In this document: one piece after another, positions 48,989-64,000 of the stretch | How positions within the stretch are numbered: position 1 is the stretch's first letter | How the letters are laid out: every line of letters begins with the position of its first letter | NCBI RefSeq assembly: GCF_023208015.1 | Contig: NZ_CP051627.1 | Location: 1,488,001 to 1,552,000 of the forward strand | Direction: 5' to 3' | Length of the DNA: 64,000 bases | Source: Thermobifida alba | GTDB taxonomy: Bacteria; Actinomycetota; Actinomycetes; Streptosporangiales; Streptosporangiaceae | The notes under the pieces: model-generated | The model's database searches: none | What the model was told of the DNA's origin: nothing | What the model saw: the letters and a program-made list of their open reading frames with translations, nothing else | Position numbers and translations under genes: made by a program

Positions 48989-50256
48989 CCGACGGTCTGC
49001 CCCCGCAGATCCGACGCCACCTCGACCGGCCGCAACTGTCGCGGCTGTGGGACCTGCTGCACGACCGGCTGCGCCGCAACGGGCTGGCGGTGCGGGGACG
49101 GCTGCGCGTGCCCGGAACGACTCCGGAGGAACGCGAGGCGCTGTCCTTGCTGATGCGACGCACTCTCACGGCCGAGAACGTGACCGTGGACCTGGCGGAC
49201 CTCGACGCCCGGCTGCGGGCCAGCGCCGCCCGGCGCGGTCTGGTGGACGTGGTGGCCGAACTACGCGGCACGATCACCGACCGCCCCCGTGAGCTGCGCG
49301 ATCAAAGAGACGCGCGACAGCATCTGCGCGAGTCCGCCCAGTCGAGTGCCGCACGCCTGGGGGCGGACCCTTGGGTGCAGCAGTGGCTGGACGAACTCTT
49401 CCGGTCGGGAATCCTGGGCCGTCTGACCCCAACGGAGGCAGCCGACCTCGTCGATCGGGCCGTACGCGTGCTGGAGGGAATCCCCGCACTCTCCGGGAAC
49501 GGCACGGGGACCGTGGGACGCCACGAACTCGCCGAGCGGGTCACCGGCACCGCGCACGGCCTCGACGACACCTCGCTGCTGGCGCGGACCGTACAGCGTG
49601 CCCTCGCCCTGGCCCTGGACCTTCCACTGCCTGCCGACGCCGCGCAACGCCGCTGGCTGTGGGCCGAGGCCGGGGTGAGCACGGACAACGTGTCCAGCAC
49701 CGTGCTGACGTACGGTCTGCGCCCCGCCGGCCCGGACTGGCTCGCCCGACAACTCCGCGAACGGGCCGAACACCATGCCGAGACCCATCTGAGCCTGCGG
49801 GACCTCCGCCGGCTGCGGTGGGGCTTCCCCGGAACCGATCCGGTGGTGTACGTCTGCGAGAATCCTCGGATCGTGGAGGCCGCCGCAGACCACGGCTGCG
49901 CGGCACCGGTCGTGTGCACCTCGGGCAACGCCACGACGGTGGTTCTCACCCTGCTGGACGCGCTCTGCGCGGCCGGAGCGGTGCTGCACGGACGCTGCGA
50001 CTTCGACTGGCCCGGGGTGGCGATGATGAACCGCCTGGTGGCCCGCTACAACGTCCAACCGTGGCGGATGCGCGCCGGTGACTACGAGGAGCACGTCACC
50101 CGCGCCCGGCAGCGGAGGACTCCGCTGAATCCGCTCTCCGGTCCCGCCCGCGAGGCTGACTGGGACCCCGAACTGGCGGCGGCCATGCACTCCCTGGGAG
50201 TGGCCGTCCACGAGGAGTCCGCTCTGGACCTGCTGGTTTCCGACCTGAGCGGGTGA
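48985..50256 (+). CDS. jetD: Wadjet JetD, TIGR02679/DUF2399 nuclease subunit
   Basis: The 423-residue protein matches TIGR02679. The N-terminal part has RPQLSRLWDLLHDRLRRNGL and the EEREALSLLMRRTLTAENVT segment. The Toprim-like C-terminal part includes DPVVYVCENPRIVEAAADHG with the glutamate and ARPVV-type strand, AVLHGRCDFDWPGVAMMNRL with the D-x-D motif (DFD) and ALDLLVSDLSG. JetD is the nuclease that cuts DNA caught by JetABC. The start overlaps the jetC stop. The set of four families in this order (2677, 2678, 2680, 2679) is complete, so the system is probably functional. Confidence 0.92.
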   Translation: MTDGLPPQIRRHLDRPQLSRLWDLLHDRLRRNGLAVRGRLRVPGTTPEEREALSLLMRRTLTAENVTVDLADLDARLRASAARRGLVDVVAELRGTITDRPRELRDQRDARQHLRESAQSSAARLGADPWVQQWLDELFRSGILGRLTPTEAADLVDRAVRVLEGIPALSGNGTGTVGRHELAERVTGTAHGLDDTSLLARTVQRALALALDLPLPADAAQRRWLWAEAGVSTDNVSSTVLTYGLRPAGPDWLARQLRERAEHHAETHLSLRDLRRLRWGFPGTDPVVYVCENPRIVEAAADHGCAAPVVCTSGNATTVVLTLLDALCAAGAVLHGRCDFDWPGVAMMNRLVARYNVQPWRMRAGDYEEHVTRARQRRTPLNPLSGPAREADWDPELAAAMHSLGVAVHEESALDLLVSDLSG

Positions 50257-50435
50257 GAGGCCGGGGAGAAGGCGGCCTGGTCTGCGGGGGTGAAGCCCGC
50301 ATGTCCGAGGCGACGGTTCCGGGGATCCCGGCCCGGGACAGTCCCGGAGGCCCCGGCGGCCTCGACGCGGCGCCCGCCATCCTCCGGGAACTGTCCGGAA
50401 GGAGCACGGCGGTGGCGCGGGGGTCCGCGAGGCGG

Positions 50436-50618
50436 CTAGCGGGGGCCGCCGCGGGCTCTCTTCTTCGCGTCGCGGACCGCCACCACGAGCCAGACGGCGA
50501 TAAGAACGACCAGAGCCGCCGATGCCGCGACGGCGTAGTAGGGGAGGTCGACGGCGAGGATCGATGCGGACAGGGCCGCAGCGAGCAGGCCGAAGGTCGG
50601 ATGCGGTGTCGGCTTCAC
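50436..50618 (-). CDS. Small two-helix membrane protein
   Basis: The 60-residue product has two hydrophobic stretches, TFGLLAAALSASILAVDLPY and YAVAASAALVVLIAVWLVVA, followed by a basic tail (VRDAKKRARGGPR). It is either a small membrane subunit or an unstudied anchor. GTG at 50618 follows a GGTGGA motif; a TTG at 50642 would add eight residues. It is opposite in direction to the Wadjet operon and convergent with it. Confidence 0.5.
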   Translation of the reverse strand: MKPTPHPTFGLLAAALSASILAVDLPYYAVAASAALVVLIAVWLVVAVRDAKKRARGGPR

Positions 50619-50689
50619 TCTCCACCCACTCTCTGTGGCCAACTACCCACGGGACTTGGTCCGCCAACCCGGCGTGATCGTGTCCCTGG

Positions 50690-50793
50690 AGCCAGGATCA
50701 CACGTCGGGCATGTCCCCAGCGTCCGGATCGCGGGTGATGGTGTCCCCAGTGCCATCCTGAGCTGTCCCAAGGGCGCTGGGGACACCATCACC
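50690..50793. repeat. Palindromic element downstream of the Wadjet operon
   Basis: GGTGATGGTGTCCCCAG (50734-50750) pairs perfectly with CTGGGGACACCATCACC (50777-50793); the stem extends inwards by four pairs including one G-T. Just to the left, 50690-50721 resembles the sequence in the loop of the 41643-41717 inverted repeat. GTCCCCAG occurs twice within the element (50713-50720 and 50743-50750), so alternative folds are possible. It may be a terminator, a non-coding RNA or the end of a small mobile element. Confidence 0.6.
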
Positions 50794-51091
50794 GACGGCT
50801 GACTGTTGGGTCCACGTCCGCCTCACCAGACTCCGGGACAGGAGCGGGGAACGTCCCCTCCGAAGCCGGATCGGTGTGCCGGATCTGGTGGATGCGCCCT
50901 CGACTCAACCCCGCCTGCTCGGCGATCTGGGCATACGACAACCCCTGAGCGTGCAGGTCCTGAATCACACGGCGACGCAACCGAGCCAGATCGGTCACCT
51001 CCTGCTGTGCCCGGGCAAGGCGTTCGGTCGCCGCCCGGAGCAGAGCGAACGGATCGTCGATCGACGCGATGCGCTCGTACTCGCCCGGCAC
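50789..51091 (-). CDS. Small HTH DNA-binding protein, sigma-70 region 4-like
   Basis: The 100-residue product has a helical start (PFALLRAATERLARAQQEVT) and a helix-turn-helix: QDLHAQGLSYAQIAEQAGLS, RGRIHQIRH. The tail is acidic and Pro-rich. It resembles the many small actinobacterial regulators that carry only a sigma-4-like HTH. GTG at 51091 follows AGGAGGGG, which decides the start over GTG at 51118. Its last bases overlap the palindromic element at 50777-50793, which could terminate it. Confidence 0.72.
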   Translation of the reverse strand: MPGEYERIASIDDPFALLRAATERLARAQQEVTDLARLRRRVIQDLHAQGLSYAQIAEQAGLSRGRIHQIRHTDPASEGTFPAPVPESGEADVDPTVSRR

Positions 51092-51119
51092 CTGCCCCCT
51101 CCTCTCGACCCCAGCCACG

Positions 51120-52176
51120 CCGCTACGGGGCTGGGCTTCGCCGACCGGTATCCCACCACAGCACGGGCCGGGCCGTCAGACCATCGCGGAAACTGGCAGG
51201 ATCCGGCCACGCGCCCGGCGGCCTGTTCCCGGTTCGTGGTTGCTCGCCGTTGTGGTTGCGGATGTCCCGGGCCGGGCAGACATGAAAACCCCACTGTCGC
51301 CGAAGTGCCGACGCCATCCCCAAAGGAAAACGCGTGACACTGGTAAGAAGAGGGCGAGCCTCATCACCGTTTGACGGTGACACCCACCGATGGCGCGGAC
51401 GCCACCGGCCGGCCTACACCCAAGGGTTCTGTGCGACACCGCTGGCCTTCACCGTGGAACTCGCCGACAACCCCGGGCAGGCTCTCATGGTCACTGCCCC
51501 ACTCCCCCACCCGAGCAACTGAACGGGCGCACCATCCGTGGCCGTCACCCCCCGCCACAGTGGCCGAGGCCATCAGGACCGTACTCGCCGAGCAATGGCG
51601 CCCCGGTTCCTCCGGACCAGCGCACCGCCGCAGACTCTGAGAAACCCCAGTGCCCGACACCCGTCCCGCGTCGCCACGAGTCATAAAGCCTGCTGCTCAG
51701 CGGACACCCTTCCACTCCGCTTCCCAAGCGGACGTGTCGTCAACGACTTCGGCAGCGAACTGCCCAATTCCTCCAAATGCCTTGATTTAGGCGAATACGC
51801 CCCAGGGAGGCGAATAGCAGTTCTGCGGCGGTGTCGACCTGGGGCTCGTCCCCTGCTGACCAATACACGGTAGGTGTGGTGGTCCACGATGCTCCTCCTG
51901 TCCCTGCCGTTTCCCCAATCACGGCGAGAACCTTCCTCACCTTGTGTTCCTTCGCTTTCCCGCGGTCCTTCCAACTACTCGTCCTCGGTTCTCCGGCCAC
52001 GACACCTCGGGTCGTTTCCCCTCCGACGGTGCTGGTCGCATGGAACCGAGGGGAAGCCACAACGTTGGTCGCAACGACCGCAGAAAAACCATGGTCCACA
52101 CTCCGACTTTCAGAAGAGTGAGCTCTCACCAATCAGTCCGTACTCTGTTCCCTTCCAATGGCGCTAGGGTTTCCTT
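51120..52176. other. About 1.05 kb with no intact gene
   Basis: This stretch is noticeably less GC-rich than its surroundings. Short protein-like pieces occur in different plus-strand frames: a GTG at 51334 behind AAAGGAAAA begins a 62-codon frame (with LAFTVELADNPGQALMVTAP), and ATVAEAIRTVLAEQWRPGSS lies at about 51560 in another frame. They may be one frameshifted gene that I cannot name. TCACCGT-TTG-ACGGTGA is a small palindrome near 51365. No transposase pattern is seen. Confidence 0.35.
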
Positions 52177-53592
52177 GTGGTTGACTCTTCGATTCGCACC
52201 AGGTTCGCTCCGTCACCGACCGGCATGTTCCACGTGGGCAACGCCCGGTCGCTACTGCTGAACTGGGTGGTCGCGCGACAATCCGGTGGAACCATGGTGC
52301 TGCGGATCGAGGACACCGACACGGCCCGCTCCCGTCCCGAGTGGACCGAGGGCATTCTGCAGGCCATGGCCTGGCTGGGTGTGGACGACAGCCAGTACGA
52401 GGGCCCCTACTTCCAGACCGACTACGCCGCCAAGCACGCCAAGGCCGCCCAGCGCCTGTTCGCGGAGGGTTTGGCCTACTACTGCGACTGCACTCGCGAG
52501 CAGGTGCAGCAGCGCCGTGACAATCCCAACCTCGGCTACGACGGCCACTGCCGGGAGCGGGGCCTGGAGGCCGCGGCGGGCCGGGCGTTGCGGTTCCGGG
52601 TTCCTGAGGGCGGCACCACGGTGGTGGAGGACCGGATTCGGGGTCGGGTGGAGTTTCCGCACTCCGCACTGGAGGACTTCGTCATCGCCCGCGGTGACGG
52701 TTCGGCGCTGTTCGTGCTGGCCAATGTGGTCGACGACGCCGAGATGGGCATCGCCCACGTCATCCGCGGTGAGGAGCACCTGTCCAACACACCCAAGCAG
52801 CAACTGCTGTGGCAGGCCCTGGGACACATCCCGCCGGTGTGGGCGCACGCGCCGGTGCTGGTCAACGACAGGCGGCAGAAGCTGTCCAAGCGCCGTGACA
52901 AGGTCTCCCTGGAGTCCTACCGGGCCGAGGGCTTTCTACCCGAGGCGATGGTCAACTACCTGATGCTGTTGGGCTGGGCCCCGGGCGAGGACCGCGAGAT
53001 CATGCCGTTGGACCAGATGGTGCCGCTGTTCGACCTGGCCGACGTCAACTCCTCTCCGGCCTTCTTCGACGAGAAGAAACTGCGCGCGTTCAACGGGGAG
53101 TACATCCGCGCCCTGGACACCACGGAGTTCGTCGAACGCTGCACCCCCTATCTGCACGCCGAGAACGTGCCCTGGCCGAAGGAGGCCTACGACGCGGCCA
53201 CCTTCGCCCGGGTGGCGCCGCTGGCGCAGAGCCGTGTCTCCGTGCTCGGTGAGATCGCCGCCTACGTCGACTTCCTGTTCCTGGAGCAACCGGTGCGGGA
53301 CGAGAAGAGTTGGGCCAAGGCGATGCGGTCCGACACCGCCCGACCGGTGCTCGCCGATACGCTCGACCGCTTCACCGATCCGGCGCTGGCCTGGGAGGCC
53401 GCCTCGCTGAAGAGCGCGTTGGAGGAGGTCGGGGCGGGCCACGGCCTCAAACTCGGCAAGGCCCAGGCCCCGGTACGGGTTGCCGTGACCGGCCGCACCG
53501 TCGGGCTGCCGCTGTTCGAGTCACTGGAAGTCCTCGGCCGTGACCGCACCCTGCACCGGATTCAGGCCGCCCTGGACAGACTGAATGCCTGA
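52177..53592 (+). CDS. gltX: Glutamyl-tRNA synthetase, atypical lineage
   Basis: The 471-residue class I synthetase charges tRNA(Glu). It has the HIGH-type motif [15 protein letters not shown], then [59 protein letters not shown] and the KMSKS-type [13 protein letters not shown]. The HVGNAR form and the compact middle part differ from the HVGLVRTALFNWAFAR pattern I associate with the main actinobacterial enzyme, so this may be a second GluRS. GTG at 52177 has AGGG upstream. It converges on the lasso-peptide operon and shares a terminator with it; there is no sign of a joint transcript. Confidence 0.92.
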
Positions 53593-53597
53593 CGGCA

Positions 53598-53634
53598 GTG
53601 GCAGCGGTCCCGCTCGGAGCAGGACCGCTGCCAC
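53598..53634. terminator. Bidirectional hairpin between gltX and the lasso operon
   Basis: GTGGCAGCGGTCC (53598-53610) pairs perfectly with GGACCGCTGCCAC (53622-53634) around 11 bases. It lies 5 bases past the gltX stop and 2 bases from the stop of the opposing methyltransferase gene. Confidence 0.88.
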
Positions 53635-53636
53635 GG

Positions 53637-54662
53637 TCAGACCAACTCCGCGCGCACGGTCCAGCCGTCGGCCTGCCGGTACAGCACGGGGCGCAGGTCC
53701 GCGTAGCCGGGCCGACCCGCTGTCCTCCATTCCTCCACCCAGGAACACAGACGGTCGAACGCGGTCTGTTCTCCCGCGCACACGGCGTCACTGGCCTGGC
53801 GTCTGGTGACCAGCGCGGCCCCGGACGGGCTGGTGACGCCGAGCCGCCATCCGGTCTGTCCCAGGCCGACCACGCCGAACTCCTCCGGGCGGGTGGCGTA
53901 CAGGAACGCCACGAAGTCCTGCCCCGACTCGTCCTCTGCCAACAGGGGACGGGCTTCGGCCCCGGTACCGAGAAGAGCGAGTAGGTGTTCGGCCGCAGCC
54001 CGGTCCCGTCCGGCCCAGTCGGCGGAGAGCCACCACGGCTGCCCCTGCGTGTCGTGGACGAGCGCGTCGACGCCCCGGGGCGGCACCAGCCACTGGGTGA
54101 GTTCTTCGGAGTGCATCTCCACGTAGCCGCCTGCGAACACCTTGTCCGCGACCGGGTCGCCGCCAGGGGTGGTGTGCAGGCGGACGATCGCGGTGGTGCG
54201 CACCCGCGCGGTCAGTTCGACCGGGACCACCAGCACCGCGCCCGCGACACTCTGCTCCACCCAGGCCCGAAAGATGCGTTCGGCGCTCGCCCAGGCGACG
54301 ATCCGGTCGAACGGGCCGCGGGTGGGCGCTCCCAGGAGTCCGTCGCCGAGGAGCACGTCGATGTCCTCGCGCCCGCGCTTGGTGTGCAGGTCACGGGCCC
54401 GGTCGACCAGGTCCGCCACCACGTCCACCGACACGACCTGTCCCGTTTCGCCGACCAGTTCCCGCAGCAGGGCACCGGAGAATCCCGACCCGGTGCCGAT
54501 CTCCAGCACCCGGTGTCCGGGGCGGACGTCGAGTGCGTCCAGCATGCGCGCGATCGTCCGCGCCGACGTGGTCTGGGCGAGCACGCTCCCGTCGGGACGG
54601 CGCGTGTAGTAGTCCTCGTCGACAGTGGCCAGAGCGGCAGCGATAGGCGGACTGATGGACAT
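53637..54662 (-). CDS. Lasso-peptide protein-isoaspartyl methyltransferase (aspartimide-forming)
   Basis: The 341-residue product is a PIMT homologue with SAM motif I VLEIGTGSGFSGALLRELVG, the RTIARMLDALDVRPGHR lead-in, motif II region GDGLLGAPTRGPFDRIVAWA and a C-terminal extension of about 150 residues beyond canonical PIMTs. In lasso clusters such enzymes methylate an aspartate in the threaded ring, and the ester then collapses to a stable aspartimide; this was described for cellulonodin-2 of Thermobifida cellulosilytica. ATG at 54662 follows GGAAAGG; an in-frame ATG at 54695 overlaps the B2 stop (ATGA) and is the alternative. It is the last gene of the operon. Confidence 0.93.
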   Translation of the reverse strand: MSISPPIAAALATVDEDYYTRRPDGSVLAQTTSARTIARMLDALDVRPGHRVLEIGTGSGFSGALLRELVGETGQVVSVDVVADLVDRARDLHTKRGREDIDVLLGDGLLGAPTRGPFDRIVAWASAERIFRAWVEQSVAGAVLVVPVELTARVRTTAIVRLHTTPGGDPVADKVFAGGYVEMHSEELTQWLVPPRGVDALVHDTQGQPWWLSADWAGRDRAAAEHLLALLGTGAEARPLLAEDESGQDFVAFLYATRPEEFGVVGLGQTGWRLGVTSPSGAALVTRRQASDAVCAGEQTAFDRLCSWVEEWRTAGRPGYADLRPVLYRQADGWTVRAELV

Positions 54663-54691
54663 GGCAGGCCTTTCCAAGAAGGTGTGGTGGG

Positions 54692-55111
54692 TCATACACG
54701 AAGCAGCAGTAGATAGGGGCGATCTGGTGTGTGGGGTTCCCCCACAGGTCGGTTACCGGTTTCAACCCAGGCGTGCGCGGCGTAGGGCATGAGTCGCGCC
54801 CCGATACACCAGTCGAGACGGCGACGCAGCAGAAGAGAAGTGAATGTGGCGGCCAGGGAATTCTCCAGACAGGCCGCCCGGCCAGGAAACCAGCGGGCCG
54901 CGTTCCTGGCCGCAACCACCGCGGTCAGGGCCTCATCCGGGGAGGCAGGGGAAGCCACACAATTTTTGACTCGGGTGACAACCACCACGGCACGACCTAT
55001 GGGAAATCTGAGCAGTACCAGGGCCAATACGAAGCCGAGCAGACCCGCGGCACGATGCCGGATTTTCAGCCGGACGGTGGGAGGAGGAGGCAGAGCCATG
55101 TGCATGCTCAC
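54692..55111 (-). CDS. Lasso peptide leader peptidase B2
   Basis: The 139-residue protein has the transglutaminase-like fold of lasso B2 proteases: catalytic cysteine in GRAACLENSLAATFTSLLLR (C81), catalytic histidine in LMPYAAHAWVETGNRPVGEP (H113). An N-terminal hydrophobic stretch (AAGLLGFVLALVLLRFPIGR) may hold it at the membrane. B2 cuts the leader after the conserved threonine-containing site once B1 presents the precursor. Its GTG overlaps the B1 stop (GTGA), fitting tight coupling with B1. Confidence 0.93.
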   Translation of the reverse strand: MSMHMALPPPPTVRLKIRHRAAGLLGFVLALVLLRFPIGRAVVVVTRVKNCVASPASPDEALTAVVAARNAARWFPGRAACLENSLAATFTSLLLRRRLDWCIGARLMPYAAHAWVETGNRPVGEPHTPDRPYLLLLRV

Positions 55112-55383
55112 TTGGCTGTCCTTCTCTCGTCGATGAGACGGTGTCGGCGCAGAACCTCAACGAGCTCACGAATATCGGTTTTCATCCGTTCCTCGCCAAC
55201 TTCGAATCTGGACGCCAACTCCGGTACAAGCGCGGCCATGTCCTTGCCGGTGGCGAGCTCGGCCCAGATCACCGCAGCGGTCGGATTGAGCCCGAAAAAC
55301 TTCCCGGTGCCGAGGTCCAGGAGTACCGCTCCGTCGTCGGTAGCCACGGAACACACGTTCGAGGCCGGCTTGACAGCTGTCAT
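55108..55383 (-). CDS. Lasso peptide RiPP recognition element B1 (PqqD-like)
   Basis: The 91-residue protein has the PqqD/RRE winged-helix pattern: DDGAVLLDLGTGKFFGLNPT, AAVIWAELATGKDMAALVPE and IRELVEVLRRHRLIDERR. B1 binds the precursor leader at its YxxP-containing segment and delivers it to B2. ATG at 55383 follows GGAGG and overlaps the stop of the cyclase gene (TGATG). Confidence 0.93.
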   Translation of the reverse strand: MTAVKPASNVCSVATDDGAVLLDLGTGKFFGLNPTAAVIWAELATGKDMAALVPELASRFEVGEERMKTDIRELVEVLRRHRLIDERRTAK

Positions 55384-57219
55384 CAACACACCTCCAGCAG
55401 CGTCGATGGGGAGAAAGACACACGGGGTTGGTGGTCAAGTCCGCGCAACCACACCTCGAAGGCGAACACCTCCCCGAGGGAGGCCATCGCCGCGTATGCA
55501 CCGCTGGCTGCGGCCTCCAGTTCGCGCAGCACCGAAGAAGGATCGATGATTCCGAGATCACCGAGCCGGGAATCCCGGAGTAAGGAGCGCAGCGCTGCCG
55601 CATTGCGGCGGATTCCGTGGTACTCACTGGCGCTGTAGTCGCCCTTGGTTCGCCGTTCGAACAGTTCAGGGGGAAGCAGACCGGTCATAGCTGCCCCGAG
55701 CAGAGGTTTGACCCGGTCGACCGAGGCCCGTTGCGTGGCAGGAACGCTGAGGCAAGCTGCCACGACCTGGTTGTCGAAGAAGGGCATGGCGATCTGCACA
55801 CCCAGGTGTTCGGCGATATCGATGAAGGACCGGGAGGCAGCCGTGTGCCGATGGATCGTGCGTAGTGTGTGCGTCGGCCCCTTCAATACCTGTCACGGTT
55901 TCGGCTGCGCGGCGGAGGCGTTCTGCCACGGCTGTCCGCGCCGCACGGGTCCCCCAGTCTGCCGCTCGGGAGAGGGACGCCCACACGATGTTGCGTTCGA
56001 CAGCCGGGTGACGCCTCCATTCAGGGGGATCGTTGCTCTCCAGTTCGTGGGCCAGGTGTGTGAGTGTGGCGGAATAGCTTGTGCGGGCGGTGTCCACGGC
56101 GGCTTGCACAACACGGTGTACCGGCCGGTGGCGAAGTCTTGCCCAGGCCCCGGACTCTCGGAGGAAGCGGAGCAGATGACGTGGACGAGCCAGGTCAGCA
56201 AGGTAGGTGAGAGGGGCTCCGAGCACCACGTCGCCTCCGTCTCCGGTCAAGTGCACCGAGGTGCCCACGACGGGTAGAAGCCGGGCTCGGTCACGGGCGT
56301 AGATGACCGAGTCGAGGCTGGGTTCCTCTGTGAACGGCGTTGCCGCCATGTTGGTGAAGGGCAGAGTTTGCGTGGTTCCTTCGACAACGGTCTGTCTCAG
56401 AGAGGACTCCATTCCTGCGAAACGCGCCGCATGGACGATGTCGTCGTCGTTGCGGGCGAACGGGTCGGCGTAGGTGACCACTTGTATTGGTTCCTGGTGG
56501 TGCTGAGCTGCGAGCAGTGCCAGCGTGGAGGAGTCCAGACCACCGGAGAAGTCTGCAGAAACAGCGGCAGCTTTCGCGGTGCGGTGGTGCACGCTCTCCT
56601 GCAGAGCATGACGAAGTGCTGTGCTCGCGGCGAAGAAGCCCGTCTGCTCGATCGGGAACATGCGTCGCAGTACCGTTGCCGTGCCGTTCCGGACGAGAAG
56701 TATCTGATCTGGTGCCAGCGCTCTGACGCTGTCGAACAGCGAATCACCGCCCAGGCTTGGACTGAACTTGGCGCAGAACAAGTGGGCGGCCAGTGCCTCC
56801 TGATCCAGGCGGTACCCATTCATGGCAGCCAGTGGGAGTGGGCTGGACGCGTACTGGACTTCTCTTTCACCACGGCGAAACCAGATCCGGTGCAGACCCG
56901 CGATGTCTCCTGTGACCGCTGTGGTTACTCCGTCGGTGACAACAGTGCTGTAAGAGCCCGCCAGTCTTGCCAACGCCTCCGCGGCTTCGGGGAGGGAAGC
57001 GTCATCGGTCAGGGCGTCTACAAGATTTTGGTCGGAGGCGAAGCACTCCCCTAGCAGGGTCACGTGGCGTCCCTCAGCGTGCAACCGTCGAACCCTGGAT
57101 TCCGGCCATTCACCGACCAGGGTTAGTGTGTGCTGCTCGGCCAGTGGTACCGATCTGTGGGTTTGCCGCCTTCCGGCGGCTTTCCGCACGGACCCGATGA
57201 AGAACTTCCGTATCGCCAT
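55383..57219 (-). pseudogene. Lasso cyclase (asparagine-synthetase-like), interrupted by a one-base insertion
   Basis: Joined across one shift, this is a normal lasso cyclase of about 611 residues. It has an N-terminal glutaminase-like half and the PP-loop SADFSGGLDSSTLALLAAQH, with HLTGDGGDVVLGAPLTYLAD for substrate activation and ISMPFFDN-type AMPFFDNQVVAACLSVPATQ near the C-terminus. The frame breaks at a run of four G (minus strand; CCCC at 55878-55881). With three G the protein reads IEGPTHTLRTIHRHTAASRS without a gap. Translation as written ends at 55666 with unrelated residues. It could be a sequencing error in a homopolymer, a real recent mutation, or slippage. ATG at 57219 follows AAGGAA. 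Confidence 0.88.
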
Positions 57220-57241
57220 GGACGCGTTCCTTCGGTTTGAA

Positions 57242-57269
57242 GGGTGGGCCTCTCATGGGAGGCCCACCC
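57242..57269 (-). terminator. Attenuating hairpin between precursor and cyclase genes
   Basis: GGGTGGGCCTC (57242-57252) pairs perfectly with GAGGCCCACCC (57259-57269). It lies in the 126-base gap after the precursor gene. Partial termination here would give far more precursor than enzyme transcript, the usual arrangement in lasso clusters. Confidence 0.75.
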
Positions 57270-57345
57270 CGTCCTGCGGCTGAGATCCGCTTGCTCACCC
57301 ACGTCGCCGAAACGGCTGTTCCGCGGTTCCTGCGGACAGAGCGGC

Positions 57346-57462
57346 CTAGTAGTACTTGGCCGTGTTCATGTCGGCGGTGTCGTCGTCCGCCGCTCCCAGC
57401 GTCACTTCACGGGCGTCTCCCAGTTCGACCAGTTCGGGGGGCTGATAGATCTCCTCGTCCAT
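57346..57462 (-). CDS. Lasso peptide precursor with aspartimide-type core
   Basis: The 38-residue peptide starts MDEEIYQPPELVELGDAREV and continues TL before the core GAADDDTADMNTAKYY. The leader has the Y-x-x-P and L motif bound by B1 (IYQPPELVEL). Threonine stands two residues before the core, the hallmark of lasso leaders, and the core begins with glycine. An isopeptide bond from G1 to D9 would give a nine-residue ring (D4, D5 and D6 being too close for a normal ring) and a seven-residue tail MNTAKYY. D6-T7 fits the Asp-Thr site used for aspartimide formation by the associated methyltransferase. ATG at 57462 follows GGAAGG. The ring and modified residue are inferred. Confidence 0.9.
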   Translation of the reverse strand: MDEEIYQPPELVELGDAREVTLGAADDDTADMNTAKYY

Positions 57463-57537
57463 CTTTTCCTTCCGCAGCAAGAAGAAATCAGGGATACGAC
57501 ACGTGTCTGTCCGCAGCAGCAAACTGACACACCCATG

Positions 57538-57586
57538 AGGATAGCCACGGAGCACAGCAGATCAACGCTATTCCCGAAAGGGAATA
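57538..57586 (-). promoter_or_regulatory. Precursor promoter with upstream palindrome
   Basis: Read leftwards, TTGATC (57565-57560) and TATCCT (57543-57538) are spaced 16 bases apart, a good vegetative promoter for the precursor gene. Directly upstream lies the perfect inverted repeat TATTCCC-GAAA-GGGAATA (57586-57569). Its place just before the minus-35 box fits an activator; the XRE regulator encoded 9 bases further up is the obvious candidate. Confidence 0.65.
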
Positions 57587-57594
57587 AAATGGAT

Positions 57595-58434
57595 TCAAGA
57601 CTGGTTGCGGAAGTCCTTGGCGATATTCGCGATAAAGCCGCGAGCCGCGCCATCGAAGAGAGCTGCGCGCTCGAAGGAAGCGAAGAGTTCCAGGTAGTAG
57701 TGGACGTCACGAGGGTCACGGAGCAGCAGGGCCCCGGTGAACATCTCTACGGTAGCCAAAGCGTCGTCGTAGATCGTGAACGTGGTGAGCGGCCCTTCGG
57801 GGATCGGAGACGACCGGAGCGGAATGACTCCGATACGAACATTCGGCAGTTCCGAAAGAGAAGAAAGACGCCCCATCTGAACCGACATGGCCTTCCCCCG
57901 GCAGAGTGGCCATCGCAGGGCCTGTTCGGTCAGGATGAAGGTGAAGTGCTTGTCCTCCTCATAAAGCACCGCCTGTCGATCGAGACGTCTGGCTATGGCC
58001 TTGGAATGGTCCCCCCGGGTGGTGGCGAGACTGGCTCTGGCGTACTCGGGAGTGTGGAGCAGGCCGGTGATCATCGCGGGTAGGAAATAGCGGAACCGCG
58101 AGGAAGTGGCTTCCAGGGTGGCAAGCTCCTGCTGCTTGTGGTGAAGGCCTCTGCGCAGGGATGCCTTCCAGTCCTGGTAGTCGGTGTTGGCGCGGCGAGC
58201 GAGTGCGGACAGCTCCTCCACGACCCGCGGCTCGGCACCGAGCGCGCGGAGGAGGCGCTCCACGTCGAGGAGCGAGGGCAGAATCTTGCCAGTTTCGATC
58301 TTGGAGATCTTGCTCTGACTCATACCCGCACGCGCGGCAAGCCGGTCTCCCGTGAGACCAGCTTGCCTGCGCAGCCGTCGCAACTCCTGTGCGAGGTCAC
58401 TCTTGCGTTTACCGAGATCTTCTGGTTCCAGCAC
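57595..58434 (-). CDS. XRE-family regulator with DUF5753 domain
   Basis: The 279-residue protein has an N-terminal helix-turn-helix (LAQELRRLRRQAGLTGDRLA, ARAGMSQSKISKIETGKILP) and the DUF5753 ligand or partner domain (FRYFLPAMITGLLHTPEYAR, RQAVLYEEDKHFTFILTEQA, then MGRLSSLSELPNVRIGVIPL). Such regulators are widespread in actinobacteria and often act with a small partner protein. It is transcribed in the same direction as the lasso precursor, and is probably its regulator. GTG at 58434 overlaps the stop of a preceding short frame. Confidence 0.9.
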   Translation of the reverse strand: MLEPEDLGKRKSDLAQELRRLRRQAGLTGDRLAARAGMSQSKISKIETGKILPSLLDVERLLRALGAEPRVVEELSALARRANTDYQDWKASLRRGLHHKQQELATLEATSSRFRYFLPAMITGLLHTPEYARASLATTRGDHSKAIARRLDRQAVLYEEDKHFTFILTEQALRWPLCRGKAMSVQMGRLSSLSELPNVRIGVIPLRSSPIPEGPLTTFTIYDDALATVEMFTGALLLRDPRDVHYYLELFASFERAALFDGAARGFIANIAKDFRNQS

Positions 58435-58574
58435 TATCCGTCGAGCCTAGCCCGGTACTCCTGGTAGGGGGTGGCCATGGCGAGCGCCGCATCCTTGCGG
58501 GCGATGTACTCGTCGACGTCGACGTCCTCCAGCAACAGACGGTCGATCTGGGTGCCGTCCTCCTCATAGCGCAT
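58434..58574 (-). CDS. Short conserved-looking protein or C-terminal remnant before the XRE gene
   Basis: About 46 residues read MRYEEDGTQIDRLLLEDVDV, DEYIARKDAALAMATPYQEY and RARLDG. The pattern looks like the C-terminus of a small protein often paired with XRE-DUF5753 regulators, but I cannot name it. The frame is open further upstream to 58769 with no sensible sequence, so the N-terminal part seems lost. Its stop overlaps the XRE start (TAGTG), which suggests former translational coupling. Confidence 0.45.
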   Translation of the reverse strand: MRYEEDGTQIDRLLLEDVDVDEYIARKDAALAMATPYQEYRARLDG

Positions 58575-59022
58575 CAGCACCACATGGCAACACGGCCACT
58601 GGACCGCACACACCCCACGCCCACTCGGTCCACCGGTGGAGACGGTGCGAGCCTCCCGTCCCGACCGGTCTGGTGGCTGCGGGCCGAGGACATGGCAGCG
58701 GGCGGCTGCGGTCCCCCGGGGGGACTGGCGGTGGGACGCGGCCCACGGACCGTCCTCGGCCACGGACACCGGGGCCCCGAAAGCCTGGAGTCACGCACTG
58801 AAGGACTCCACACCAACCACCCGGCGCACCCGACCAGGTCCGCTCCACCGTCCACGGCCGCACCGGCGCCGCCCCTGCCCTGCTGTCCGAAGCAAAGCAG
58901 ACCCCTCGGACAAAGGGACCGCGAAGGGAAATCCATACACGAAGCAGTGATTGCTTTGGGCTTTCTCGGCTAGCGGGCCGCACGACCTTCAACCCTGCTT
59001 CTCGCCTTTGGAGGCGCTTGCG
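58575..59022. other. About 450 bases between divergent genes, no supportable gene
   Basis: The only frames are overlapping low-complexity ones. Promoters for the leftward XRE group and the rightward membrane gene must lie here; I cannot place them precisely. Confidence 0.4.
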
Positions 59023-59691
59023 ATGCAGATGCAGATGATGCAGATGGCCCAGCGCAACACCGTGGTGCGCGGACTGCACGACCTGGGCCTGGCCGCGTGG
59101 TTCGGCGGTTCCCTCATGGGGGCGGTCGGTCTGAACAAGGCCGCGGACCAGGAGTCCAAAGGACTCAACGAGTCGATCCGCATCTCCGGCGCGGGATGGG
59201 ACAAGTGGGCCCCGCTCAACCTCGCCGCGATCGGCGCGCACCTGGTCGGCGGCGCCGGACTGCTGGGCGCCAACCGGGAACGGGTGATGAACCAGAAGGG
59301 CGTGGGCGCCTCGACCGTCGCCAAGACCGCGGTGACCGCCGCGGCGCTGGGCGCCACCGCCTACTCCCGGATGCTGGGACGGCGCGCCGAGGAGGCCGCC
59401 ACCTCGCCCGAGCCGCTCGACAGCGCGTCCTCCGCGAACAGCCCCGAGACGCTGGAGGACACCTCGCGCAAGCTGCGGATCGCGCAGTGGGCGGTGCCCG
59501 CCCTGACCGGCGCCCTGGTGGTGCTCAACGCCCTGCACGGCGAACAGCAGAAGGCCACCCAGCAGAAGCTGGGGTTCATGCGGGCGATGGGCTCGCGCAT
59601 GGGCATGGGAGCCAAGACGGGTTCCCGCATGGGCCTGGGGTCCAAGATGGGTCTGGGGTCCAAGATGGGCCTGGGCATGGGCGCGGCGTGA
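59023..59691 (+). CDS. Membrane protein with Met/Gly repeat tail
   Basis: The 222-residue protein starts MQMQMMQMAQRNTVVRGLHD and has hydrophobic segments at about 20-38 (LAAWFGGSLMGAVGLN), 65-85 (LNLAAIGAHLVGGAGLLGA), 97-115 (ASTVAKTAVTAAALGATAYS) and 157-175 (AQWAVPALTGALVVLNAL). The tail is a short repeat (MGSRMGMGAKTGSRMGLGSK, then MGLGSKMGLGMGAA). I know similar uncharacterised proteins from actinobacteria but no function. ATG at 59023 follows GGAGG. Confidence 0.75.
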   Translation: MQMQMMQMAQRNTVVRGLHDLGLAAWFGGSLMGAVGLNKAADQESKGLNESIRISGAGWDKWAPLNLAAIGAHLVGGAGLLGANRERVMNQKGVGASTVAKTAVTAAALGATAYSRMLGRRAEEAATSPEPLDSASSANSPETLEDTSRKLRIAQWAVPALTGALVVLNALHGEQQKATQQKLGFMRAMGSRMGMGAKTGSRMGLGSKMGLGSKMGLGMGAA

Positions 59692-59695
59692 CCCG

Positions 59696-59729
59696 GGGTG
59701 GGCGGCGTTGCGCGCGACGCCGCCCACCC
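59696..59729. terminator. Bidirectional hairpin between membrane protein and GH3 genes
   Basis: GGGTGGGCGGCGT (59696-59708) pairs perfectly with ACGCCGCCCACCC (59717-59729), 4 bases past one stop and 7 bases from the opposing one. Confidence 0.85.
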
Positions 59730-59736
59730 GCGCCTG

Positions 59737-62523
59737 TCAGGACAGGTCGACCCAGGCCAGGGCCGTCCCGGCGGTCTCGAACACCACGTAGAGGTCGCGC
59801 CGCTGGGACAGGCCGGCCACCGGGACGCGGACCTCGGTGAAGTCGAACCGGTCAGCTGATGCCGCCACCTCGGCGGTGCCGACCACGGGTCCGCCGATCG
59901 GGTTGTCCACCCGCAGGGTCAGCCGTCCCGCCTCGGCGGCGTTGACCGACAGCACCGCCTGCTCGGGCCGCGCGGAGAAGTCCACGTCGAGGAAGGCCAC
60001 CCACGCCGCGGACTCGGTGGCGCGCACCGCGTCGCCGCTCTCCTTCGCCGCGGCGCACAGCACCACCCCGTGGTACTCGTCGTTGTCGGCGGCCTGGATG
60101 CGTGCGGCCGCGCGCGGCCCGATGGCCTCACCCGGGACCTGGAGCGGCGCGCACACCCGCAGGTCCTTGGCGGAGCGTCCCAGGTGCACGGTGCGGGGCG
60201 CGTCCTCCACCACGAACCGGGATCGGGTGACGTCCCAGACCGCCAGCGCCGCGACGGGGAACTCCACGCGCACCCGCCGGGTCTCCCCCGGTTCCAGGGC
60301 CACCCGGGCGAACCCCTGGAGTTTGCGCAGCGGCTGCTTGACCCGGGAGACCCGCTGGTGGGTGTAGCACTGCACGACCTCCTCGCCGAAGCGGTCCCCG
60401 GTGTTGGCGACGCTCACCTCCACCGCCACCCGGTCGCCGTCCACGTGCACCCGGGGGTCGGCGTAGTCGAAGGTGGTGTAGCTCAGCCCGTGCCCGAAGG
60501 GGTACAGCGGCGAGCCCAGGTAGTACAGGTAGGTGGCGTCGTTGGCGATGATGTCGTAGTCGAACAGGTCGGGCAGTTCGGCGGCGGAGCGGTACCAGGT
60601 CTGGGTGAGGCGCCCGGCCGGGTCGGCGTCGCCGAAGAGCACCTCGGCCAGTGCCCGCCCGTACTCCTGTCCGCCGTGCGCCGACCACAGGATCGCCGGG
60701 ACGTGCTCGTCGGCCCAGACCACTCCGAAGGGGTAGCCGCTGCTGAGCACCAGGACGGTGGCGGGGTTGGCGGCGCGCACCGCGCGCAGCACCTCCTCCT
60801 GGGCGGCGGGCAGGTCCAGGTCGGTGCGGTCCTCGGTCTCGCGTCCGTTGACCAGCGGGTGGTCTCCGGCGACCACGATCGCGACCTCGGCGGTGGCGGC
60901 GACCGCGGCGGCCTCGGCCGCGCCCGAGCGCAGCACGTCCACGGTGAACACCGCCGCCGCGTCGGCGTCGGGGGTCAGCGTCACCACGCCGCCCTCGCCG
61001 ACGGCGACGTAGCGGCCGGTGGCGAGGTGCTGCAGCACGCCGGTGCCGCCGGGGTCGGGCTGCCAGCGGAAGGTCTGGCGCACCTCCCAGCCGTTGGGTC
61101 CGGGCTGGTCGTTGGTGAGGTGGCCGTCCTCGGTCTCGGAGACGTAGCGGCCGTTGACGACCGCGCGCAGCGCCCACGCCCCGCCCCAGTCGAACAGGTC
61201 GAAGGCCGCGGACTCGGCGACGGGTCCGAACCCGGGGGCGGGGGTCAGCGTCAGCGGCGTGCCCTCGGCTCCGGCGGTCAGGTACCCCTCGTCGGTGCGC
61301 AGCGCGATGCGGTCCACGCCCTCGCAGAACACGGTCTCGGTGCGTTCGGCCAGTCCCGTCCGGGCGGTGACGGCGTAGGGCAGGGTGCCGCTGTACCAGT
61401 CCTCCATGAGGGTGTCGGCGAGCTGGCCGATGACGGCGACGCGGCGCGGGGCGCACAGCGGCAGCAGGCCGTCGTTCTTGAGCAGCACCATGGAGCGGCG
61501 GGCGGCGGTGCGCGCCAGCGCCTGGTGGGCCGGGCAGTTGACGACGTCGGTGCCGACGCGGAGCGGCAGGCCGGGGTCGAACTCGCCCAGGCGGGTGCGC
61601 ACCGACAGGATGTGGGTGACGGCCCGGTCCAGGTCGGCCTCGGTGAGCAGGCCGCGGGCCAGGGCGTCGCGGAGGTGGCCGAGGGTGGCCTCGGCGCGGT
61701 CGTCGTCCTGGGTGAAGCTGTCGACCCCGGCGCGCAGGGCGTGGGCGTAGGCGGTGGCGTGGTCGGCGTGGTAGTGCTGCGGGTCGACGAGGTTGCCGGG
61801 GGCCATGGCGTCGCTGACCACCATCAGCTCGTCGGGGGCGGCGGCGCGCAGCACCTCGTTGATGAGGGGGCTCAGGTGCGCGGGGCGGCCGTTGACCAGG
61901 TTGTAGGAGGGCATGACGGCGACCGCGGAGCCGTCGCGCAGCGCGGGCAGGAACGCGGGCAGTTCGTACTCGTGCAGTACGCGCGGGGGCAGGTGGCTGG
62001 AGCTGGTGCAGCGGTCGGTCTCGTTGTTGTAGGCGAGGAAGTGCTTGAGGGTGGGGGCGGTGTCCAGCCGGTCGGGGTCGTCCCCGGCCAGGCCGCGGGC
62101 GTAGGCGACGGCCATGACGCCGGTGAGCCAGGGGTCCTCGGAGTAGCCCTCCTCGTTGCGGCCCCAGCGGGGGTCGCGCAGCGGGTTGACGACCGGCGCC
62201 CAGACGTTGCGGCCCGCTCCGGCGGGGTCCTTGGTGTGGAAGGCGAGCACTTCGGCGGCGGTGGCCGCGCCCACCCGGCGCACCAGGTCGGGGTCCCAGG
62301 TGCTGGCCAGGCCGATGGCCTGGGGGAACACGGTGGCCGGGCCCAGCCAGGCCAGGCCGTGCAGGGCCTCGGTTCCGGTGCGGAACGGGCCGATGCCCAG
62401 GCGGGGCACGGGCCGCTGGTACTGGTGGAGCAGGCCGATCTTCTCCTCGGTGGTGAGCCGGGCCACGAGGTCGCGGACCCGCTCTCGGGGGCTGAGGGAG
62501 GGGTCGCGGAAGGGTTCGGTCAC
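59737..62523 (-). CDS. GH3 beta-glycosidase with inserted beta-trefoil-like and terminal CBM6-like domains
   Basis: The 928-residue intracellular enzyme (no signal peptide) has the GH3 catalytic barrel (VWAPVVNPLRDPRWGRNEEG with YSEDPWL, APTLKHFLAYNNET) and the nucleophile aspartate in ELMVVSDAMAPGNLVDPQHY. The second alpha/beta domain carries MVLLKNDGLLPL and WSAHGGQEYGRALAEVLFGD. Between its halves, about residues 440-540, is a beta-rich insertion (RAVVNGRYVSETEDGHLTND, LQHLATGRYVAVGEGGVVTL). A fibronectin-III-like part (PLYPFGHGLSYTTFDYADPR onwards) and a CBM6-like end (YHGVVLCAAAKESGD, ending LDVDFSARPEQAVLSVNAAE) follow. It splits beta-glucosides or beta-xylosides; the specificity cannot be fixed. 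GTG at 62523 is preferred over TTG at 62535. Confidence 0.92.
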   Translation of the reverse strand: MTEPFRDPSLSPRERVRDLVARLTTEEKIGLLHQYQRPVPRLGIGPFRTGTEALHGLAWLGPATVFPQAIGLASTWDPDLVRRVGAATAAEVLAFHTKDPAGAGRNVWAPVVNPLRDPRWGRNEEGYSEDPWLTGVMAVAYARGLAGDDPDRLDTAPTLKHFLAYNNETDRCTSSSHLPPRVLHEYELPAFLPALRDGSAVAVMPSYNLVNGRPAHLSPLINEVLRAAAPDELMVVSDAMAPGNLVDPQHYHADHATAYAHALRAGVDSFTQDDDRAEATLGHLRDALARGLLTEADLDRAVTHILSVRTRLGEFDPGLPLRVGTDVVNCPAHQALARTAARRSMVLLKNDGLLPLCAPRRVAVIGQLADTLMEDWYSGTLPYAVTARTGLAERTETVFCEGVDRIALRTDEGYLTAGAEGTPLTLTPAPGFGPVAESAAFDLFDWGGAWALRAVVNGRYVSETEDGHLTNDQPGPNGWEVRQTFRWQPDPGGTGVLQHLATGRYVAVGEGGVVTLTPDADAAAVFTVDVLRSGAAEAAAVAATAEVAIVVAGDHPLVNGRETEDRTDLDLPAAQEEVLRAVRAANPATVLVLSSGYPFGVVWADEHVPAILWSAHGGQEYGRALAEVLFGDADPAGRLTQTWYRSAAELPDLFDYDIIANDATYLYYLGSPLYPFGHGLSYTTFDYADPRVHVDGDRVAVEVSVANTGDRFGEEVVQCYTHQRVSRVKQPLRKLQGFARVALEPGETRRVRVEFPVAALAVWDVTRSRFVVEDAPRTVHLGRSAKDLRVCAPLQVPGEAIGPRAAARIQAADNDEYHGVVLCAAAKESGDAVRATESAAWVAFLDVDFSARPEQAVLSVNAAEAGRLTLRVDNPIGGPVVGTAEVAASADRFDFTEVRVPVAGLSQRRDLYVVFETAGTALAWVDLS

Positions 62524-62559
62524 GGTGGGTCCCAATCTGGTCGTGGGGGCGGGCCGGGG

Positions 62560-63810
62560 TCAGCGGGGGGCGCGGGCGGCCGCGGCGAGGTCGTGGGTCG
62601 GGGTGGTGCCGTCGGGGAGGCGGCCCTCCTCGACGGCGTCGAGGATGCGGGCGGCAGCACCCAGCGCGGGGGCGTCCAGGCCGAGGGTGGAGGGCACCGC
62701 GATGGGCTCCTCGACCGCCACGCCGCGCGTGTCGAGCAGGCCGTTGACCACGGGCAGCAGCCAGGGCGCGAGTTCGGCGTAGTAGCCGCCGAGGATGACG
62801 CGTTCGGGGTCGAGCACGCTGACCAGGGTGAACACACCTGCGGCCAGGTCGTGGGCGGCCTCGTCGAGGCGGGTCAGGGTGGTGGTGTCGCCGGCGCGGG
62901 CACGGGCGACGATCTCGTCGATGCGTAGTTCCACCTCGGCCAGCGACAGGTGTCCGTCATCGCGGGCCTCGTCGGGCAGGGTGCGGCGGGCGATCGCGGT
63001 CACCGACGCGACCGTCTCCAGGCGCGCCGAGCCGCCGGGGGCGGGCACCGGGATGTGTCCGGCCTCGCCGCTGTAGCCGGAGTGGCCGCGGCGCAGTGCC
63101 CCGTCGACGAGCAGGCCCGCGCCCAGGCTGGTGCCGCCGGTGAGGTAGACGAGGTCGCGGGTGCCGACGTGCTCGCCGAAGCGGTGTTCGGCCAGGACCG
63201 CGTAGTTGGCGTCGTTGCCGATCTCCACGGGGAAGCCGGGGCCGCGCAGCGCGTCGACGAGTTCGGCGGCGAAGTCGACGTCGCGCCAGTGGAGGGCGGG
63301 GACGAGGCGGGCTCGGCCGTCGGGGTCGACCAGGCCGGGCAGGGCCACGCCCAGGCCGAGGACCTGGCGGCCGTCGTGCTCGATGCGGGTGACGACGCGG
63401 CGGGCCAGGGCGGTGACGGCGGTGACGGCGCGCGCGGGGGGGACGGTGCTGGCGGGGAAGGCGCGCCGCCACGACAGCACGGGGCGGCCGGCCAGGTCGA
63501 CGGCGACGGCGGTGAGGTAGTCGGCGTTGACCTCGATGCCGATGGCCGCGCACGAGGCGCCGTCCAGGGTGAGCATGATGGCGGGGCGGCCCACCCGGTT
63601 CTCGGTGGTGCCGGTCTCGCGCAGCAGCCGGCGCCGCAGCAGTTCGGAGACCAGGCTGGAGACGGTGGTCTTGTTCAGTCCGGTGGCCGCGGCGATGTCG
63701 GCCCGCGAGCAGGGGCCCTGTTCGCGGACGCAGCGCAGCACCAGGGCCAGGTTGGTGGCGCGGACGTCGCCCACCTCTGCCTTGTTGGGGTCTCTTGTCC
63801 TGCCGATCAC
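62560..63810 (-). CDS. ROK-family transcriptional regulator without zinc motif
   Basis: The 416-residue protein has a winged helix (RATNLALVLRCVREQGPCSR, AATGLNKTTVSSLVSELLRR) and a ROK domain (VEIGNDANYAVLAEHRFGEH, VYLTGGTSLGAGLLVDGALR, GEAGHIPVPAPGGSARLETV). The CxCGxxGC zinc cluster normally following GHI is replaced by PAPGGSARLE, so it lacks the metal site. It lies 36 bases upstream of the GH3 gene, the first gene of a likely two-gene operon, and divergent from a gene starting at 63980. It probably represses both on absence of an oligosaccharide inducer. GTG at 63810 is the start. Confidence 0.9.
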   Translation of the reverse strand: MIGRTRDPNKAEVGDVRATNLALVLRCVREQGPCSRADIAAATGLNKTTVSSLVSELLRRRLLRETGTTENRVGRPAIMLTLDGASCAAIGIEVNADYLTAVAVDLAGRPVLSWRRAFPASTVPPARAVTAVTALARRVVTRIEHDGRQVLGLGVALPGLVDPDGRARLVPALHWRDVDFAAELVDALRGPGFPVEIGNDANYAVLAEHRFGEHVGTRDLVYLTGGTSLGAGLLVDGALRRGHSGYSGEAGHIPVPAPGGSARLETVASVTAIARRTLPDEARDDGHLSLAEVELRIDEIVARARAGDTTTLTRLDEAAHDLAAGVFTLVSVLDPERVILGGYYAELAPWLLPVVNGLLDTRGVAVEEPIAVPSTLGLDAPALGAAARILDAVEEGRLPDGTTPTHDLAAAARAPR

Positions 63811-63876
63811 CGTGTGTCCCGTTCCCGTTTCGCAGCGCTTCGGTTGCGGATCTTGTGGTCCGCATCACTCACGAGT

Positions 63877-63905
63877 AATTTGTTTGTCTATAACCCGAAC
63901 TAATT
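63877..63905. promoter_or_regulatory. Inverted repeat, ROK operator candidate
   Basis: AATTTGTTTG (63877-63886) and CGAACTAATT (63896-63905) are inverted copies matching at 8 of 10 positions, separated by 9 bases in an A/T-rich patch. It lies between the ROK gene and the divergent gene at 63980. The half-sites resemble those in the xylB-xylR gap. Confidence 0.65.
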
Positions 63906-63979
63906 CTATCGCGGTCGCCCTCCGGACTCCAGAGAGTGACCGCAAAACAACAGGGCCTCCCTCCCCCGAAGGGACCACC

Positions 63980-64000
63980 ATGAGACACTCCCGCCCCTCA
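63980..64000 (+). CDS. Start of a gene cut by the window edge
   Basis: ATG at 63980, nine bases after a GAAGGGA motif, begins MRHSRPS before the window ends. Its place, divergent from a ROK repressor with an operator between, fits the first gene of a sugar-transport operon (often a substrate-binding lipoprotein), but seven residues prove nothing. Confidence 0.4.

What the first reader, a model, noticed from the sequence alone, without database searches (positions are those of the whole stretch)
57346..57462. Lasso peptide precursor whose core carries a DDDT aspartimide-type site
The core GAADDDTADMNTAKYY (leader cut after TL) has glycine 1, a ring-closing D9 and an Asp-Thr at 6-7, encoded with a lasso PIMT homologue. 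This predicts a ring with four aspartates, one as macrolactam and one as aspartimide, and a very short polar tail ending KYY. PIMT-modified lasso peptides are known (cellulonodin-2, lihuanodin); whether this exact core is identical to a described one I cannot tell.
Basis: partly seen in the sequence, partly recalled or inferred. Interest (0 to 1): 0.72.

Follow-up and report, generated by a model that had tools for sequence, protein, structure and literature searches.

The report
Cellulonodin-2 precursor beside a broken cyclase
The gene encodes a small knotted-peptide precursor identical to one in the bacterium from which the known natural product cellulonodin-2 was described, but here the enzyme gene that should tie the knot carries a reading-frame break, so this strain probably does not make the product as sequenced.

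Summary
In detail: the minus strand at 57346-57462 encodes MDEEIYQPPELVELGDAREVTL|GAADDDTADMNTAKYY, a lasso precursor with B1, B2 and PIMT genes downstream. It is not new. Precursor, B1, B2 and PIMT are each 100% identical to a locus of Thermobifida cellulosilytica TB100, the species from which cellulonodin-2 was described; of TB100's two lasso B2 loci only this one was found to have a PIMT. Its DTAD at core 6-9 is the published signature: D6 aspartimide, D9 ring. So this is very probably cellulonodin-2 itself.

A 2-nt contraction of a CA run splits the 612-aa TB100 cyclase into two frames. The cellulonodin-2 methyltransferase acts only on the threaded lasso, so neither lasso nor aspartimide is expected unless the shift is a sequencing error or is suppressed. 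The upstream DUF6879 gene is truncated too. Of 15 DTAD-type loci found in this order, window included, 10 have a near full-length, single-frame cyclase, 3 a frame break, 2 only an N-terminal piece. Known system; a probably decaying copy.

The parts
57346..57462 (-). Lasso precursor (TceA-type), 38 aa plus stop; 22-aa leader ending TL
   Evidence: 100% identical to TB100
57349..57396 (-). Core peptide GAADDDTADMNTAKYY; predicted ring G1-D9
   Evidence: sequence; published DTAD rule
57370..57381 (-). DTAD motif, core 6-9: D6 predicted aspartimide, D9 predicted ring residue
55864..57219 (-). Cyclase (AsnB-like), first 452 residues in register with TB100; the open frame then runs on out of register to 55666
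55865..55871 (-). Frame break: CA run one CA unit (2 nt) shorter than in TB100
55383..55886 (-). Cyclase C-terminal part in another frame; matches Asn_synthase profile positions 230-354 of 354
55108..55389 (-). B1, PqqD/RRE-type leader-binding protein, open frame
   Evidence: 100% identical to TB100
54692..55111 (-). B2, lasso transglutaminase-like leader peptidase, open frame
   Evidence: 100% identical to TB100
53637..54695 (-). PIMT homologue (TceM-type O-methyltransferase), 352 aa, with C-terminal WRTAGRP = WXXXGXP motif
57595..58434 (-). XRE-type regulator with DUF5753 domain, upstream of the precursor; a same-strand homologue lies just upstream of the precursor in 8 of the 14 relatives besides TB100
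58434..58586 (-). Remnant of a DUF6879 gene: only the last part remains (177 aa, full match in TB100)

Best explanation
This is the cellulonodin-2 gene cluster (regulator-A-C-B1-B2-M) in a Thermobifida genome closely related to T. cellulosilytica. In a working copy, B1 binds the leader, B2 cuts after TL, the cyclase C joins Gly1 to Asp9 around the tail, and the PIMT homologue methylates Asp6 of the threaded peptide; the Thr7 amide then closes the aspartimide. In this genome as sequenced, the cyclase has lost two bases in a CA run and is split about three quarters of the way along, so the pathway should stop at a linear peptide, with no lasso and no aspartimide. Shown here: the genes, their identity to TB100, and the frame break. 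Taken from the literature or general knowledge of lasso enzymes: the chemistry. Inferred: that the core letters equal the published ones, and that this copy is inactive.
For: Precursor, B1, B2 and PIMT are 100% identical to TB100. TB100 has two lasso B2 loci; no PIMT was found in a 13-kb stretch around the other. DTAD at core 6-9 and WXXXGXP in the PIMT match the published traits. TB100 has a 612-aa cyclase in one frame; the window's is in two. The alignment shows one 2-nt gap in a CA run. Of the four small indels in the two alignments covering 47969-64000, this is the only one that breaks a recognised gene of the window. At 50945 the window has an open 109-aa HTH frame that TB100 lacks; at 62624 the window has a 416-aa ROK-family frame where TB100 runs on to 1227 aa; at 58722 none of the four frames scanned had a Pfam match. 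Upstream, the DUF6879 gene has lost its 5' part, a second lesion. Codon differences from TB100: cyclase 5' part 3 silent and 4 amino-acid changing; B1+B2+M together 1 silent and 0 changing (small numbers). The cellulonodin-2 methyltransferase needs the threaded lasso.
Against: The printed core letters of cellulonodin-2 could not be read: the original paper is not held, figures are not held, and no paper in the library contains the letters searched. The strain used in the original paper was not seen in any text read. A 2-nt contraction could be an assembly error; no reads or second genome of this species were available. A, B1, B2 and M are open with almost no changes, so the break, if real, is recent.
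Confidence: 0.65

Rival explanations
1. The frame break is a sequencing or assembly error and the cluster is fully functional, making cellulonodin-2 exactly.
For: All other genes of the cluster are open. The difference is one unit of a short CA run. TB100, 99.6% identical over 47969-58586, has the cyclase in one frame.
Against: The genome is one contig scored 100% complete with 0.04 contamination. Of four small indels in 47969-64000 no other breaks a recognised gene of the window; at two of them it is TB100's frame that differs. The run is not a homopolymer. The neighbouring DUF6879 gene is also damaged, by a 740-bp difference too large for base-calling error.
Confidence: 0.3
2. The split cyclase still works, by ribosomal or transcriptional slippage at the CA run or as two separately translated pieces.
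For: Both halves still match the Asn_synthase profile well (59.5 and 67.5 bits), and frame breaks in this gene also occur in two relatives.
Against: No recognised slippery heptamer or long homopolymer at the site (by eye). The breaks in relatives lie elsewhere (about residues 167 and 473 of the TB100 cyclase against about 452 here), which argues against a conserved recoding site.
Confidence: 0.03
3. A different ring or cut: the leader is cut elsewhere, or ring closure uses another aspartate (D4, D5 or D6).
For: The core has four aspartates in its first nine residues.
Against: In all 15 DTAD loci G1, D6, T7, A8 and D9 are kept, while positions 4 or 5 are acidic in only 3 of 15 (window, TB100, G091). 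The two characterised members use D9 for the ring and D6 for the aspartimide.
Confidence: 0.02

Closest known systems
Cellulonodin-2 (tce cluster, Thermobifida cellulosilytica)
   Same: Precursor, B1, B2 and PIMT 100% identical in amino acids to the TB100 locus; same gene order. DTAD at core 6-9.
   Different: Cyclase frame-broken; upstream DUF6879 gene truncated.
Lihuanodin (Lihuaxuella thermophila)
   Same: DTAD at core 6-9 and PIMT with WXXXGXP, as reported in PMC13001092.
   Different: From a firmicute (PMC9266682, passage); core letters not available here, so not compared.
   Same: Same leader pattern, G1 and DTAD; order A-C-B1-B2-M in the 11 where all five were found.
   Different: PIMT 44-59% identical in the 11 that have one; none has the DDD run of this core.

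Membership tests
Lasso peptide cluster | Precursor with lasso leader motif and G at core 1 | tested here: met
   NF033521 31.3 bits, cut-off 19; sequence
Lasso peptide cluster | Leader-binding B1 and peptidase B2 | tested here: met
   PqqD 58.9 bits, cut-off 23.4; NF033537 76 bits, cut-off 33. The lasso-specific model NF033530 scores B1 at 68.3, just under its cut-off of 70
Lasso peptide cluster | Intact AsnB-like macrolactam cyclase | tested here: not met
   Gene in two frames; one frame of 612 aa in TB100
Lassimiditide, group 1 | D(T/S)AD at core 6-9 | tested here: met
   rule
Lassimiditide, group 1 | PIMT homologue with C-terminal extension and WXXXGXP | tested here: met
   352 aa, PF01135 at 40-164, WRTAGRP
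Lassimiditide, group 1 | Threaded product with aspartimide at D6 and isopeptide at D9 | not testable with these tools
   needs mass spectrometry or NMR; doubtful in this strain given the cyclase break
Cellulonodin-2 | Precursor and PIMT identical to the T. cellulosilytica locus | tested here: met
   100% over 38 and 352 residues; TB100 is named
Cellulonodin-2 | Core letters as printed in the 2021 paper | not testable with these tools
   paper not held; letters not found in the library

The most novel reading that the evidence does not exclude
Loss of the cyclase is recurrent in this lasso family (5 of 15 loci as sequenced) while the precursor stays, hinting that the peptide or, in three of the five, the intact PIMT is kept for some use other than making the lasso, or that the product is repeatedly selected against.
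Probability: 0.05. Interest if true: 0.5.

Novelty: already known. Interest (0 to 1): 0.18.

Why it matters
It saves a wasted discovery effort: the peptide is very probably cellulonodin-2. It also warns that this strain should not be the one grown for mass spectrometry without first checking the cyclase gene. The damage seen in several relatives is a modest lead on how these clusters are lost.

Tried and rejected
Looked for a solved structure of the precursor (best hit E = 1, MS-271 precursor; chains under 20 residues are not in that library). Looked for the core letters in print (0 papers; 9 papers name cellulonodin, of which passages or a section of 3 were read, PMC13001092, PMC9266682 and PMC13352647). 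Considered that the second lasso locus of this genome supplies a cyclase in trans: its cyclase frame is open, but the precursor-like frame beside it has no Asp after the presumed cut and looks fusilassin-like (name recalled, not compared); whether that cyclase would take this precursor was not testable. Considered programmed frameshifting: rejected for lack of a shared site among relatives. Searched for papers on frame-broken lasso cyclases (1 paper holds all four terms; in its passages, the frameshifts concern a chloramphenicol gene). The genome-contig scan with the PIMT returned only TB100, so wider sampling came from the genome search in the order. A PDB search with the PIMT gave ordinary protein-repair methyltransferases.

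G232 (L054) was left out of the DTAD counts because its core lacks the motif and no PIMT was found in its 12-kb stretch.

Full report
What is there. The minus strand of 57346-57462 encodes a 38-residue lasso precursor, MDEEIYQPPELVELGDAREVTLGAADDDTADMNTAKYY. Its leader scores 31.3 bits against NCBIfam lasso_leader_L3 (cut-off 19). Downstream on the same strand follow an AsnB-like cyclase, a PqqD-type B1 (55108-55389), a transglutaminase-like B2 (54692-55111) and a PIMT homologue of 352 residues (53637-54695). Upstream lies an XRE regulator with a DUF5753 domain (57595-58434). A glutamyl-tRNA-synthetase-family gene ends at 53592 on the other strand.

What it is. The window lies in a 4.90-Mb single-contig genome. 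A genome of the same genus, G001, carries a precursor 100% identical over 38 residues; the other two genomes of the genus searched have no match at E<=0.01. The genome scan with the PIMT returned one locus, 100% identical over 352 residues, on NZ_KQ950181.1 of Thermobifida cellulosilytica TB100; the contig length, 870,518, equals that of G001:C2. B1 and B2 are also 100% identical. TB100 has two lasso B2 loci; no PIMT was found in a 13-kb stretch around the other. T. cellulosilytica is the source of cellulonodin-2, which has DTAD at core positions 6-9, aspartimide at D6 and ring closure at D9 (PMC13001092, passages and section 8; PMC9266682, passages). PMC10787088 (passages) reports 67 PIMT-lasso clusters, one group with DTAD in the ring. 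The window core has DTAD at exactly 6-9, and its PIMT has the WXXXGXP motif as WRTAGRP. I conclude that this is the cellulonodin-2 cluster. The printed core letters could not be checked: the original paper is not held and no held paper contains the letters searched.

The cyclase is broken. The frame starting at 57219 matches the cyclase profile only up to position 405 of 561; positions from 426 on match in another frame. TB100 has one frame of 612 residues. The DNA alignment shows one 2-nt gap, a CA run one unit shorter in the window. The break falls after residue 452 of 612, so the last part of the Asn_synthase domain (profile 230-354 of 354) is out of frame. The literature states that the cellulonodin-2 methyltransferase does not modify linear precursor, linear core or the ring alone. 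So the PIMT, though its own frame is open, would have no substrate.

Error or real? In the two alignments with TB100 covering 47969-64000 there are four small indels. One is the cyclase break. One (50945) lies in a small HTH gene (50789-51118 minus, Sigma70_r4 28.4 bits) whose frame is open in the window and interrupted in TB100. One (62624) lies in a ROK-family gene of 416 aa in the window, where TB100's frame runs on to 1227 aa. The fourth (58722) lies in no gene that Pfam recognises in the four frames scanned. So the window's assembly is not seen to be prone to indels here; the TB100 draft has doubtful spots, but its cyclase frame is supported by nine other relatives with a near full-length single-frame match. 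Next to the cluster the window lacks 740 bp present in TB100 (junction at 58586), leaving only the end of a DUF6879 gene that is complete in TB100. Codon differences are 3 silent and 4 changing in the cyclase 5' part against 1 silent and 0 changing in B1, B2 and M together; the numbers are small. I lean to a real, recent loss (about 2 to 1) but cannot exclude an assembly error.

Relatives. Of 345 genomes of the order searched with the precursor, 16 match at E<=0.001. Fifteen of these, window and TB100 included, have DTAD; the exception is G232. PIMT genes were found in 11 of the 14 relatives besides TB100; these 11 and TB100's all carry WXXXGXP (12 of 12). Of the 15 DTAD loci, the cyclase matches in one frame over most of its length in 10. 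It is frame-shifted in 3 (window, G094, G151), and only an N-terminal piece was found in 2 (G105, G118), where no B1, B2 or PIMT was found in the 12-kb stretch. The shift in G094 is a 1-nt gap against G103; that in G151, a single-contig assembly, is seen as two frames. The breaks lie at different places, so this looks like independent decay or, in part, sequencing error, not a conserved recoding signal. Read support was not available.

Verdict. A sound observation of a known peptide. The new point is that this copy probably no longer makes it.

Noticed in passing
window 58434-58769 and junction 58586: DUF6879 gene reduced to its C-terminal end; TB100 has 740 bp more here and a 177-aa gene with full DUF6879 match directly upstream of the XRE/DUF5753 regulator.
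   Followed up: partly
L056 5474-7558 minus (G000:C1 about 558473-560557) and a frame ending at L056 7347: Second lasso locus of this genome with an open cyclase frame; the frame ending at 7347 holds ...KKYTAPQIAKAGGFKESTGWYTANSGVEIYLIFPRWLR, which resembles fusilassin (recalled, not compared). TB100 has the related locus (89% identical DNA over 3.36 kb).
   Followed up: partly
L047 about 4590; L055 about 5655; L051; L053: Other DTAD lasso loci with damaged cyclase genes: frame shifts in G094 and G151, N-terminal piece only in G105 and G118.
   Followed up: partly
L043, L044, L046, L049, L051, L052, L053: Seven DTAD precursors have Ile (six) or Val (one) instead of Thr at the penultimate leader position; a paper on penultimate isoleucine exists (PMC10368454, seen only in the listing).
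   Followed up: no
window 37583-64000 against 10420-35460: The stretch 37583-64000 is 98-99.9% identical to TB100, while further left only short pieces at 83-90% align in the TB100 stretches fetched: a sharp change in similarity.
   Followed up: no
window 50789-51118 minus: Small HTH gene (Sigma70_r4-like), open in the window and interrupted by a 1-nt difference in TB100.
   Followed up: partly
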